Source: Agelas oroides (taxonomy: Eukaryota > Porifera > Demospongiae > Agelasida > Agelasidae). From it: a DNA stretch of 64,000 bases. Positions 1,073-13,389 of this stretch are shown here, piece by piece. The notes under the pieces were generated by a model. The model saw only the letters and a list, made by a program, of their open reading frames with translations, was not told the DNA's origin and made no database searches. The DNA is taken from the NCBI GenBank assembly GCA_949130485.1, contig OX422184.1, positions 19,918,824 to 19,982,823 on the forward strand, given 5' to 3'. The translations under genes were made by a program, and so were the position numbers. How positions within the stretch are numbered: the first letter of the stretch is position 1; the number at the start of each line of letters is the position of its first letter.

Positions 1073-1211
1073 GTAGACCAGCTTTGATGCAAAACTTTCT
1101 GTATTTTGCAAACCGCCGGTTTCTTGTTCATGCCAACCGCAATAGGAGTGGGATACAGACGTTTACACTGAGTAATACAAGCAATGCTATTGCTGTTGAC
1201 TTTGATATCAG
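1073..1211 (+). CDS. Exon 1 seen: first YWTD blade strand
   Basis: Acceptor CTGCAG at 1067-1072 and donor GTAGG at 1212. It encodes a segment containing FLYFANRRFLVHANR and ending AIAVDFDIR. LRP-family propellers open with 'LLFANRRDIR...AVDFD', so this is the start of blade one. It is entered in phase 1 and left in phase 2, and joins exon 2 without a stop. Confidence 0.75.
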
Positions 1212-1774
1212 GTAGGTTGATATAACATCTCTGAGGTACATGTAACACTTTATAGTATGTGGTTACTCTGAGATGAGAATGTTCCCAAGTGTTCATTGGG
1301 ACTGATGTTAATACTGTTACAATATGCAGATACTAAGTATATATGTGCATGCGTAGAATGTGCATCACACAGCTCAGGCACCTGCATCGCTTGCATGAAT
1401 GGTGCAAGAAGAACCCATGGCGCCAGTGTACGAAATTTGAAGTGTAAAATTTACTTGCACTGTTGTAGGCAGGTGCTAGATAAGCTGGAACTCTTCAGGA
1501 AGTGTCACACTCTTCATTTGGCATGGCAGGTTTTTGTGACATGTTTTTTGCCAGATTGTCACTTATCTATGTTTTGCCACGGTCTGCTTACCACATTGCT
1601 CGCTGCTCATGCCTAGCAGATAAAATGGCTTCAGGGGGTGATTACTGCACTTTACGTATCTCTCTGTTCCCTCACTCTTTTGATGTTACCAAACAATGAG
1701 ACTGCCTGTGCTGCTGTGTGTTTGTACTCAAACAAAAAGGACTAAGGGAATTCCAAAGCATTGCGGACATACAT

Positions 1775-10800: not shown

Positions 10801-13389
10801 GCTTACAACTTTCGCACCCAGATTTGCTGCAATGGACTTGTTCAATCACGAGGCATCTCCACCTCTTGTTGTGGAACGCGTCTCTACAACACTCGCACCC
10901 AAATCTGCTGCAGTGGAGTTCTTCAGGCACGAGGCAACTCCACATCTTGCTGTGGAACACGTCCTTACAACTTTCGTACCCAGATTTGTTGCAGTGGAGC
11001 ACTTCAGGTACGAGGCAACTCTACATCCTGCTGTAGAACACGTCCTTATAACTTCCGCACCCAGATTTGCTGCAATGGGGTTGTTCAGTCACGAAGCATC
11101 TCCACCTCTTGCTGTGGAAGTCGCACCTACAACACTCGCACTCATATCTGCTGTAGTGGAGTTCTTCAAGCACGAGGCATCTCCACCTCTTGCTGTAGAA
11201 CACGTGCTTACAACTTTCGCACCCAGATTTGCTGCAATGGAGTTGTTCAATCACGAGGCATCTCCACCTCTTGTTGTGGAACACGTATCTACAACACTCG
11301 AACCCACATCTGCTGCAGTACAGTTCTTCAGGTACGAGGTAACTCCACCTCCTGCTGTGGAACACGTCCTTATAACTTTCGCACCCAGATTTGCTGCCGT
11401 GGAGTAGCTCAGGTACGAGGCAACTCCACGTCTTGCTGTAGAACACGTCCTTACAATTATCGCACCCAGATTTGCTGCAATGGACTTGTTCACTCACGAG
11501 GCATCTCCACCTCTTGCTGTGGAACGCGTCTCTACAACATTCGCACCCAAATCTGCTGCAGTGGAGCTCTTCAGGCACGAGGCAACTCCACGTCTTGCTG
11601 TGGAACACGTCCTTACAACTTTCGTACCCAGATTTGTTGCAGTGGAGCACTTCAGGTACGAGGCAACTCTACATCCTGCTGTAGAACACGTGCTTACAAC
11701 TTTCGCACCCAGATTTGTTGCAGTGGAGTTCTTCAGGCACGAGGTAACTCTACGTCTTGCTGTAGAACACGTGCTTACAACTTTCGCACCCAGATTTGCT
11801 GCAATGGGGTTGTTCAATCACGAGGCATCTCCACCACTTGCTGTGGAAGTCGTACCTACAACACTCGCACTCATATCTGCTGTAGTGGAGTTCTTCAAGC
11901 ACGAGGCATCTCCACCTCTTGCTGTAGAACACGTGCTTACAACTTTCGCACCCAGATTTGCTGCAATGGAGTTGTTCAATCACGAGGCATCTCCACCTCT
12001 TGTTGTGGAACACGTATCTACAACACTCGAACCCACATCTGCTGCAGTACAGTTCTTCAGGTACGAGGTAACTCCACCTCCTGCTGTGGAACACGTCCTT
12101 ATAACTTTCGCACCCAGATTTGCTGCCGTGGAGTAGCTCAGGTACGAGGCAACTCCACGTCTTGCTGTAGAACACGTCCTTACAATTATCGTACACAGAT
12201 TTGCTGCAATGGACTTGTTCACTCACGAGGCATCTCCACCTCTTGCTGTGGAACGCGTCTCTACAACATTCGCACCCAAATCTGCTGCAGTGGAGCTCTT
12301 CAGGCACGAGGCAACTCCACGTCTTGCTGTGGAACACGTCCTTACAACTTTCGTACCCAGATTTGTTGCAGTGGAGCACTTCAGGTACGAGGCAACTCTA
12401 CATCCTGCTGTAGAACACGTCCTTATAACTTCCGCACCCAGATTTGCTGCAATGGGATTGTTCAGTCACGAGGCATCTCCACCTCTTGCTGTGGAAGTCG
12501 TACCTACAACACTCGCACTCATATCTGCTGTAGTGGAGTTCTTCAAGCACGAGGCATCTCAACCTCTTGCTGTAGAACACGTGCTTACAACTTTCGCACC
12601 CAGATTTGTTGCAGTGGAGTTCTTCAGGCACGAGGTAACTCTACGTCTTGCTGTAGAACACGTGCTTACAACTTTCGCACCCAGATTTGCTGCAATGGAG
12701 TTGTTCAATCACGAGGCATCTCCACCTCTTGTTGTGGAACGCGTCTCTACAATACTCGCACCCAAATCTGCTGCAGTGGAGTTCTTCAGGCACGAGGCAA
12801 CTCCACGTCTTGCTGTGGAACACGTCCTTACAACTTTCGCACCCAGATTTGTTGCAGTGGAGTTCTTCAGGCACGAGGCAACTCCACGTCTTGCTGTGGA
12901 ACACATCCTTACAACTTTCGTACCCAGATTTGTTGCAGTGGAGTACTTCAGGTACGAGGCAACTCTACATCCTGCTGTAGAACACGTCCTTATAACTTCC
13001 GCACCCAGATTTGCTGCAATGGGATTGTTCAGTCACGAGGCATCTCCACCTCTTGCTGTGGAAGTAATACCTACAACACTCGCACTCATATCTGCTGTAG
13101 TGGAGTTCTTCAAGCACGAGGCATCTCCACCTCTTGCTGTAGAACACGTGCTTACAACTTTCGCACACAGATTTGTTGCAGTGGAGTTCTTCAGGCACGA
13201 GGTAACTCTACGTCTTGCTGTGGAACCCGTCCTTACAACTTTCGTACCCAGATTTGCTGCAATGGGGTTGTTCAATCACGAGGCACCTTCACGGCTTGCT
13301 GTACAACACGTGCATACAATACTCGCACCCATATTTGCTGCGATGGGAAGATTTCTTCAATAGGTATTGGAACCGTTTGTCGTAAATGA
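1073..13389 (+). CDS. YWTD propeller-EGF-SRCR-galaxin-repeat protein (5' partial, 8 exons)
   Basis: Gene-level entry. Eight exons join with consistent splice phases (1-2, 2-1, 1-2, 2-1, then 1-1 to the last) and give about 3,040 residues ending at the TGA at 13387-13389. Domain order is a YWTD six-bladed propeller as in LDL-receptor and LRP proteins, one EGF module, one SRCR domain split over two exons, and 97 galaxin-type di-cysteine repeats. The N-terminus is missing. LRP-type propellers bind protein ligands, SRCR domains bind ligands outside the cell, and galaxins are extracellular matrix or skeletal proteins in corals. By inference this is a very large secreted matrix or surface protein. 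No membrane segment follows the repeats, so secretion is favoured. I know of no described protein with this architecture. Confidence 0.82.
1774..1838. repeat. (CA)n / (TA)n microsatellite
   Basis: About 16 CA dinucleotides followed by ATATATACATATACATATATGT, in the intron between exons 1 and 2. It produces the open frames seen on both strands there. Confidence 0.9.
2470..2576 (+). CDS. Exon 2: YWTD blade (GYMFWSD)
   Basis: Acceptor AATGCAG, donor GTAATG. The text reads LGYMFWSDVAHKVIATARL then a TILVDSS segment, a typical LDLR class B repeat. It joins the next exon to make NVP-DGLAWDW across a phase 1 junction. Confidence 0.8.
2893..2918. repeat. Poly-C tract
   Basis: Nearly uninterrupted run of C in an intron. 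Similar tracts occur at about 16419-16430, 17072-17096 and 52197-52207. Confidence 0.85.
3251..3410 (+). CDS. Exon 3: YWTD blade (KLYWTD)
   Basis: Encodes DGLAWDWVNRKLYWTDAQDK and a PRAIVVDPQNK end. The acceptor at 3249-3250 is chosen over an upstream AG at 3213 because only it keeps the reading frame from exon 2. Donor GTAAGA. Confidence 0.85.
3600..3997 (+). CDS. Exon 4: three YWTD blades
   Basis: Contains QMYWTDW, ILYWMDAW and RVYWTDW strands with the usual spacing, including PNALTLDY and PFGITFY. This completes most of a six-bladed propeller. Acceptor TTCCAG, donor GTTTGT. Confidence 0.9.
4070..4204 (+). CDS. Exon 5: EGF module
   Basis: Encodes NPCASNNGGCSHLCLL, then TCACPDGHGF and a final Cys in GRNC. 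These are the six cysteines of the EGF module that normally closes an LDLR-type propeller. The donor is weak (GTGCAT), but the phase 1-1 exon fits both neighbours. Confidence 0.82.
4487..4648 (+). CDS. Exon 6: SRCR domain, first half
   Basis: Encodes IRLVNGTSAFEGRVEVCW, then WGTVCDDSW and ACRQLGFP, which are the hallmark segments of scavenger-receptor cysteine-rich domains. Phase 1-1 exon with acceptor TTTAG and donor GTAAGC. Confidence 0.9.
4857..5021 (+). CDS. Exon 7: SRCR domain, second half
   Basis: Encodes PILLDNLICNSSETRLVDC, then HSCVHSKDAGLRC. The ILLDN, L..C and C.H..DAG..C pattern completes the SRCR domain. Phase 1-1. Acceptor CTGCAG, donor GTATGT. Confidence 0.9.
5528..13389 (+). 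CDS. Exon 8: 97 galaxin-type di-cysteine repeats
   Basis: A single 7,862-bp terminal exon, entered in phase 1 after CCCATAG and open to the TGA at 13387. It encodes 97 units of 27 residues with consensus STSCCGTRPYNFRTQICC plus a linker of the form SGVLQARGN. Each unit carries two adjacent-cysteine pairs and a Tyr-Asn, the signature of galaxin repeats first known from stony-coral skeleton proteins. Many linkers contain an NST glycosylation sequon. The last unit is divergent (TACCTTRAYNTRTHICCDG) and the protein ends ISSIGIGTVCRK. The array is extremely homogeneous at the DNA level, which implies recent unequal exchange or gene conversion and makes the copy number likely to vary between alleles. 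Confidence 0.85.
5530..13386 (+). repeat. Tandem array of 97 x 81-bp units
   Basis: 7,857 bp divided by 81 gives exactly 97 units. Variants recur in a higher-order pattern: the same marker unit occurs at 6855, 7584, 8880, 11472 and 12201, spaced 729, 1296, 2592 and 729 bp, all multiples of 81. The block from about 6855 to 8200 recurs at an offset of 4,617 bp (57 units), including a private GTACACAG variant at 7574 and 12191. Confidence 0.95.

What the first reader, a model, noticed from the sequence alone, without database searches (positions are those of the whole stretch)
1073..13389. LRP-like propeller and SRCR fused to a 97-unit galaxin array
Seen: eight exons with matching phases join YWTD blades, EGF, SRCR and a 2,619-residue di-cysteine repeat region in one reading frame. 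Known: galaxins are repeat proteins of coral skeletons; YWTD and SRCR are receptor or ligand-binding modules. Inference: a giant extracellular protein coupling ligand recognition to a cross-linked cysteine scaffold, possibly skeletal or matrix. I know of no described protein with this order.
Basis: partly seen in the sequence, partly recalled or inferred. Interest (0 to 1): 0.78.

Follow-up and report, generated by a model that had tools for sequence, protein, structure and literature searches.

The report
Propeller-SRCR-galaxin fusion gene, probably sponge
The sequence carries what looks like one gene, probably from a sponge, that joins a receptor-like binding head to a very long disulfide-rich galaxin tail; related genes in the same genome carry the same head with other tails.

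Summary
Eight exons (1073-13389) with matching phases encode LRP-type YWTD blades, EGF, SRCR and 97 x 27 = 2,619 residues that Pfam scores as Galaxin_repeat. I extended the gene upstream: a signal-peptide exon and an acidic propeptide exon ending RDKR|QT complete an uninterrupted 3,150-residue ORF. The head has eight close copies in this genome, this one included; the tails read for six of the other seven are SRCRs or EGFs. The genome-wide galaxin search lists no galaxin at those loci, except a separate galaxin gene (P2) beside one of them. One gene is favoured: the exon 7 donor and intron start are conserved in two paralogues, where another SRCR follows, and no convincing signal-peptide exon lies between head and array. 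Against certainty: at the paralogous locus head-SRCR and galaxin are two genes 3.8 kb apart, and no transcript was available. A skeletal role is untested; mitochondrial features suggest a sponge, species unknown. A new combination of known modules, best explained by exon shuffling; not a new kind of system.

The parts
1073..1211 (+). exon 1 in window (third exon of the gene): first propeller blade (LYFANRR...)
   Evidence: splice sites and phase; 68% identical over 53 aa in paralogue P1; no Pfam hit on its own
2470..2576 (+). exon 2: blade 2 (MFWSD)
   Evidence: Ldl_recept_b E 1.5e-5
3251..3410 (+). exon 3: blade 3 (YWTD)
   Evidence: Ldl_recept_b E 1.7e-5; 76% identical in P1
3600..3997 (+). 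exon 4: YWTD blades 4 to 6
   Evidence: Ldl_recept_b 7.1e-26, 3 stretches; seven other close copies in the genome
4070..4198 (+). exon 5: EGF (FXa_inhibition) that closes the propeller
   Evidence: PF14670 2.3e-13
4487..4648 (+). exon 6: first half of SRCR
   Evidence: PF00530 3.1e-14
4857..5021 (+). exon 7: second half of SRCR, phase-1 donor GTATGT
   Evidence: PF00530 1.5e-9; donor and intron start conserved in L029 and L030
5022..5527 (+). intron 7, the SRCR-to-galaxin junction; no convincing signal-peptide exon
5528..13389 (+). exon 8: 97-unit galaxin array and stop codon TGA
   Evidence: PF24748 3435.8 bits, 43 stretches

Best explanation
One transcription unit encodes a secreted protein of about 3,150 aa (345 kDa): signal peptide, acidic propeptide ending in a furin-type RDKR site, six-blade YWTD propeller closed by an EGF, one SRCR, then a 97-unit galaxin array. 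It arose by exon shuffling: a head gene that in its paralogues continues into more SRCRs or EGFs has here a complete phase-1 galaxin exon as its tail. Shown by sequence: gene anatomy, phase compatibility, paralogous heads with other tails, standalone galaxin genes with a homologous signal-peptide exon. Inferred: splicing of exon 7 to exon 8; furin removes the acidic propeptide; propeller and SRCR bind protein or surface ligands; the array (388 Cys, up to 194 disulfides, 333 Arg/Lys against one Asp/Glu) folds as a chain of short beta-hairpins stapled by disulfides and gives a long, basic, protease-resistant scaffold that anchors the head in extracellular matrix, mucus or another anionic material.
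For: Uninterrupted ATG-to-TGA ORF over 10 exons. Domain calls (13, 75, 80). The head matches solved LRP6, LRP4 and LDLR propeller-EGF units over nearly its whole length. Paralogue P1 has signal peptide, propeptide with RDRR, YWTD, EGF and SRCR in the same order. In L029 and L030 an SRCR ends at a donor whose intron start aligns to window 5022-5058 and 5022-5088 (scores 52 and 53 against maxima of 33 and 32 in 60 shuffles each), and another SRCR follows on the same strand, so exon 7 is not built like a last exon. A direct search of the window finds SRCR only in exons 6 and 7. The signal-peptide scan finds the three known exons (this gene, P1, P2) and plausible ones before three of four other arrays, but in window 1-5527 only one off-frame candidate, plus two weak ones at a lower threshold. 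A similarity search with five signal peptides finds on this strand, from 20 kb upstream to window 5600, only the exon at -5867 with E below 0.1. The array starts and ends with the single-Cys caps seen in standalone copies. The best AlphaFold model has 30 four-residue strands in hairpins, as described for galaxins and calcarins (PMC12419799, passages).
Against: No RNA evidence. At the paralogous locus head and galaxin are two genes. An ATTAAA sits at 5304 inside intron 7, and reading past exon 7 would stop at 5047, so a short head-only product is possible. The signal-peptide scan found nothing before one of the other arrays (C18a), so it can miss, and it gave a false candidate beside P2. The signal-peptide exon of this gene is nearer in DNA to those of the galaxin genes P2 and C18b (80% and 76%) than to that of the head gene P1 (68%), while P1 and P2 are nearest to each other (86%), so these exons do not sort by gene type. 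Only one of five structure models is confident (pLDDT 87.2; the others 44.6 to 56.4) and no solved structure matches at E <= 0.001. The origin of the 3' part of intron 7 was not found.
Confidence: 0.72

Rival explanations
1. Two neighbouring genes, as at the paralogous locus: a head-SRCR gene that ends near exon 7, and a secreted galaxin gene that begins with an unrecognised signal-peptide exon.
For: P1 stops after its second SRCR and P2 has its own signal-peptide exon plus a galaxin exon 3.8 kb downstream on the same strand; other galaxin genes of this genome also look standalone.
Against: Exon 7 has a conserved donor and no further SRCR lies in the window; only 506 bp separate exon 7 from the array; no convincing signal-peptide exon in window 1-5527. 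A second exon of this signal-peptide type lies 10 kb further upstream, but on the opposite strand.
Confidence: 0.15
2. Alternative splicing makes both: the full fusion and a standalone galaxin in which the signal-peptide exon joins the array directly, since both borders are phase 1.
For: The signal-peptide exon leaves in phase 1 and exon 8 enters in phase 1; P2 and C18b have just a signal-peptide exon and an array exon, with signal-peptide exons 80% and 76% identical in DNA to this one.
Against: No transcript data; skipping eight exons in one step is unusual (general knowledge).
Confidence: 0.2
3. Skeletal matrix protein, as in corals: the array templates or cross-links mineral.
For: Galaxin repeats by Pfam; galaxins and calcarins are in coral skeletons and calcareous sponge spicules (PMC12419799, passages).
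Against: Galaxin-like proteins of non-calcifying animals have other roles (same passages); species and skeleton type unknown; the array is strongly basic with one acidic residue in 2,619, which is not what one expects of a calcium binder (general knowledge).
Confidence: 0.15
4. Secreted defence or mucus protein: SRCR and propeller bind microbes or debris, and the disulfide scaffold makes gels or aggregates.
For: Five of the six other head tails read are SRCRs; SRCR expansion in invertebrates, sponges included, is discussed as non-self recognition (PMC10855680, abstract start and passages); very basic array.
Against: No expression or binding data.
Confidence: 0.3
5. Assembly artefact or decaying gene.
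For: 97 near-identical units with a 1,199-bp exact repeat at a lag of 57 units; the paralogue P2 has a premature stop.
Against: No frameshift or stop in 9,453 nt, and unit changes are mostly synonymous. The unit count may still be inexact.
Confidence: 0.05

Closest known systems
LDLR/LRP family propeller-EGF module (LRP4, LRP6, LRP2, LDLR)
   Same: Six YWTD-type blades closed by an FXa_inhibition-type EGF; near full-length matches to solved LRP6 and LRP4 propellers
   Different: One propeller only; no LDL class A hit in the first 747 aa and no membrane-like segment by hydropathy; an acidic propeptide with RDKR precedes it
[quoted passage not shown]
   Same: PF24748; evenly spaced di-cysteines with a single Cys before and after the array; predicted four-residue hairpins
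   Different: 193 di-cysteines against the 10-23 reported for calcarins; behind a propeller, EGF and SRCR
SRCR proteins that also carry YWTD blades (Mya P0027, Holothuria P0119)
   Same: SRCR and YWTD blades in one protein
   Different: No galaxin domain in those records; order and number of modules differ
VWA-galaxin proteins of bivalves (Mercenaria P0002, Mya P0003)
   Same: Galaxin repeats fused to adhesion-type domains
   Different: VWA instead of propeller/SRCR; best local alignments only 26% and 25% identical
Large sponge proteins with FN3 and laminin EGF domains and a short galaxin-like part (PMC12419799, passages)
   Same: Galaxin-like region in a big multidomain secreted sponge protein
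   Different: There about 200 aa between FN3 domains; here 2,619 aa at the C-terminus

Membership tests
Galaxin / galaxin-like | Match to the curated galaxin repeat model | tested here: met
   3435.8 bits against a cut-off of 28, 43 stretches
Galaxin / galaxin-like | Regular di-cysteines with a single Cys before and after | tested here: met
   193 CC, spacing 13/14, single Cys at both ends
Galaxin / galaxin-like | Secreted protein | tested here: met
   By sequence only: signal-peptide-like first exon, homologous in P1, P2 and C18b; no 19-aa window outside it above 1.25 in hydropathy
Galaxin / galaxin-like | Presence in a mineral skeleton | not testable with these tools
   no proteome; species unknown
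Galaxin / galaxin-like | Disulfide-linked beta-hairpin chain | tested here: inconclusive
   hairpins in the best model, but four of five models are poor; disulfides not seen
LRP/LDLR family | YWTD propeller plus EGF | tested here: met
LRP/LDLR family | LDL class A repeats | tested here: not met
   none reported in the joined first 747 aa
LRP/LDLR family | Transmembrane segment | tested here: not met
   highest 19-aa hydropathy outside the signal peptide 1.25
SRCR superfamily | Complete SRCR domain | tested here: met
   PF00530 positions 1-99 of 100, 2.1e-26

The most novel reading that the evidence does not exclude
An exon-trading system of one signal-peptide exon, one propeller head and swappable phase-1 tails (SRCR, EGF, galaxin). 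At this locus the same promoter could make both a 345-kDa recognition-plus-scaffold protein and, by skipping the head exons, a plain secreted galaxin, so the animal could set the ratio of targeted to untargeted scaffold by splicing. The standalone galaxins with a homologous signal-peptide exon (P2, C18b) would be offshoots of such fusion loci, or their source.
Probability: 0.2. Interest if true: 0.65.

Novelty: new variant of a known kind. Interest (0 to 1): 0.5.

Why it matters
Galaxin arrays are known mainly as skeletal matrix proteins whose function is not settled. A gene that puts such an array behind a ligand-binding head, with paralogues that show the parts separately, gives a concrete case of how matrix proteins of early-branching animals may gain targeting, and makes galaxin function testable outside skeletons. 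It is also a clean exon-shuffling case: same head, same intron phase, different tails.

Tried and rejected
Galaxin part not galaxin: rejected. Skeleton-only reading: tested by nothing here, kept as a rival. Two-gene reading: kept, lowered by the conserved donor and the missing signal-peptide exon. The search for the source of the 3' part of intron 7 found only itself; of seven comparison stretches the intron aligned above shuffles to L029 and L030 and marginally to one C18 stretch (34 against 31), and not above shuffles to the other four, P2 included. The solved-structure search with ten array units found nothing at E <= 0.1. Foldseek against the PDB gave no match at E <= 0.001. Species identification by COI gave no sponge name: the best records were unnamed (up to 93% identity), and the named animals among the 120 listed were Anemonia at 87% and Trichoplax at 85%. 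The C6:226-231 kb and C23 galaxin matches are low-complexity tandem repeats by inspection. The first pN/pS script crashed and was rerun. On checking this report I found that an earlier statement of mine, no other exon of this signal-peptide type in the 20 kb upstream, was wrong: one lies on the opposite strand at about -16185. One search failed on a wrong frame and was repeated corrected.
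Full report
WHAT IS THERE. The window is G000:C2:19918824-19982823 of a 259-Mb, 141-contig genome without a name. The eight exons of the finding are real: AG/GT borders, matching phases, one frame, stop at 13387-13389. Comparison with a paralogous locus (L024+L025, C2:19428001-19448000) showed two more exons upstream of the window: a signal-peptide exon (L009 4133-4199) and a propeptide exon (L009 6393-6656). Joined, the gene is 9,453 nt from ATG to TGA, 3,150 aa, about 345 kDa. The order is signal peptide 1-22, propeptide 23-105 (five acidic 9-residue repeats, ends RDKR), YWTD 111-378, EGF 379-422, SRCR 423-531, galaxin 532-3150. 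The dibasic site before the propeller reads DKRQ or DRRQ also in P1, in L033 and in P0118.

DOMAINS. Exon by exon Pfam gives Ldl_recept_b (exons 2, 3, 4), FXa_inhibition (5), SRCR (6, 7) and Galaxin_repeat (8); exon 1 alone has no hit. The joined first 747 aa give the same four families. The head matches the propeller-EGF unit of solved LRP6, LRP4, LRP2 and LDLR chains (36 distinct sequences at E <= 1e-20). Hydropathy shows no membrane-like stretch outside the signal peptide.

THE ARRAY. 97 units of 27 aa, 46 distinct in DNA; mean DNA identity between units 2-96 is 84%; pN/pS 0.35; an exact 1,199-bp repeat at a lag of 57 units shows recent block duplication, so the unit number may vary between individuals. 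388 Cys, 193 CC pairs, a single Cys at both ends; 333 Arg/Lys and one Asp/Glu; 54 N-glycosylation-type motifs. An AlphaFold model of the first eight units, with 22 other repeat stretches of this genome as alignment, shows 30 four-residue strands in hairpins (pLDDT 87.2, pTM 0.56), but the other four models are poor (44.6-56.4), so the fold is suggestive only. It agrees with the published description for galaxins and calcarins (PMC12419799; I saw the abstract start and passages).

FAMILY OF HEADS. A genome search with exon 4 gave 60 matches, 64 of 64 candidates scored; eight, this gene included, are 76-100% identical, the next is 65%. I fetched DNA of the seven others (7 to 20 kb per place, two of them in one 16-kb stretch). 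Tails by same-strand matches, only P1 followed to its stop: P1 two SRCRs then a stop; L029 at least three SRCRs; L030 at least five; L031 one SRCR and half of another; L032 at least three; the first C18 head EGFs; the second C18 head shows only its EGF, no tail seen in the next 6 kb. The genome-wide galaxin search (83 matches, 121 of 121 candidates scored, a lower bound by its own note) lists no galaxin at those loci except P2 beside P1. P0118, a record without organism name, has the same head (60% identity over 43% of the query) with an EGF tail.

OTHER GALAXINS. About eleven further arrays lie in this genome: two on C7, four on C6, two on C18, two on C12 and P2 on C2. No head match was found in the 10-kb tiles around them except P1 beside P2. 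I saw a signal-peptide exon or start for five (P2, C18b, C7a, C7b, one on C12); the rest were not modelled. By consensus unit the nearest to this array is C18b (85% in DNA), then C18a (83%) and P2 (80%; C7 and C6 units have another length and were not scored, C12 was not included). The signal-peptide exons of P2 and C18b are homologous to that of this gene (80% and 76% DNA identity) and of P1 (86% and 81%); this gene against P1 is only 68%. Heads and some galaxins therefore share a first exon, which fits exchange of phase-1 exons; whether fusion or split came first is open.

ONE GENE OR TWO. For one gene: the donor of exon 7 and the first 37-67 bases of its intron are conserved in L029 and L030, where another SRCR follows; in the window itself SRCR matches are confined to exons 6 and 7. 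The scan for signal-peptide exons finds the known ones of this gene, P1 and P2, and plausible ones before three of four other arrays (none for C18a). In window 1-5527 it finds one off-frame candidate inside exon 3 and, at a lower threshold, two weak ones whose donor is 38 bp before the array. Similarity to five known signal peptides, over 20 kb upstream plus window 1-5600, finds on this strand only the exon at -5867 with E below 0.1. For two genes: the P1/P2 arrangement, an ATTAAA at 5304, no RNA. A second exon of the same signal-peptide type at -16185 is on the opposite strand and so cannot serve this array. I put one gene at about 0.8 and the whole explanation, mechanism included, at 0.72.

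ORGANISM. Contig C141 carries ORFs that I read as nad6, nad3, nad4L and cox1 in that order (names for the first three are recalled from their sequence, not from a call), with TGA in frame, and cox1 is interrupted by an ORF with motifs LAGLIEGDG and LAGFLDADG. Such cox1 introns are reported from several sponge groups and from stony corals (PMC2444032 and PMC5360047, passages). The gene order is, from memory, that of demosponges and not of corals. At least 230 SRCR matches fit a sponge (296 SRCR genes in Amphimedon, PMC10855680, passages), though sea urchins have many too (same passages). No tool named the species, so the sponge label is inference.

PUBLISHED PRECEDENT. Paper searches for galaxin with SRCR (2 papers: passages of one seen; the other listing only), with LDL (7, listing only), with domain architecture (3, listing only) and with sponge (28, of which 20 listed; passages of one seen) showed no such fusion. 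Protein searches: 4 relatives of the array at E <= 1e-10 among 5,226 candidates, none with SRCR or YWTD domains listed, two with VWA; for the joined N-terminus 594 hits among the 7,993 candidates scored, 120 listed, none of those listed with a galaxin domain, two with both SRCR and YWTD (P0027, P0119).

VERDICT. A real gene model with a new combination of known modules in a family whose heads carry different tails. Interest 0.5: unusual and well anchored in paralogues, but domain shuffling of this type is expected in such genomes, and function is inferred.

Noticed in passing
window 15739-17486 and 30332-63615, minus strand: Exons for a tyrosine kinase, many FN3 domains, Sushi repeats and a fibrinogen C-terminal domain lie on the minus strand and could be one large receptor tyrosine kinase gene or several genes. 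Pfam was run on two kinase, five FN3, three Sushi and one fibrinogen ORFs, all met; the other FN3 ORFs by eye.
   Followed up: partly
window 30326-36000 against 37944-41390: Segmental duplication of FN3 exons at a distance of about 6.1-8 kb, copies 83-98% identical.
   Followed up: no
window 57199-57609: DDE_1 transposase fragment on the minus strand.
   Followed up: no
window about -16185 to -16250, minus strand (L010): A second exon of the same signal-peptide type (82% identical in protein to that of this gene) in opposite orientation, with a GT after it; its gene was not resolved.
   Followed up: partly
L024 1801-3562 (C2:19429801-19431562), minus strand: P2, a standalone signal-peptide/galaxin gene beside P1, carries a premature TGA in its array in this assembly.
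   Followed up: partly
L024 about 4783-6877: A minisatellite of about 82 bp, by inspection of the ORF list, lies between P1 and P2.
   Followed up: no
L009 6385-6522 (window about -3615 to -3478): A 27-bp tandem repeat makes five acidic 9-aa repeats in the propeptide; four of the five copies contain a CAG that could act as a splice acceptor. None seen in P1.
   Followed up: partly
L036 (G000:C107:16161-16646): A second cox1 match, 52% identical and without in-frame TGA, may be bacterial: a symbiont or contaminant contig.
   Followed up: no
L035 2181-3317: LAGLIDADG-type ORF interrupts mitochondrial cox1.
   Followed up: partly
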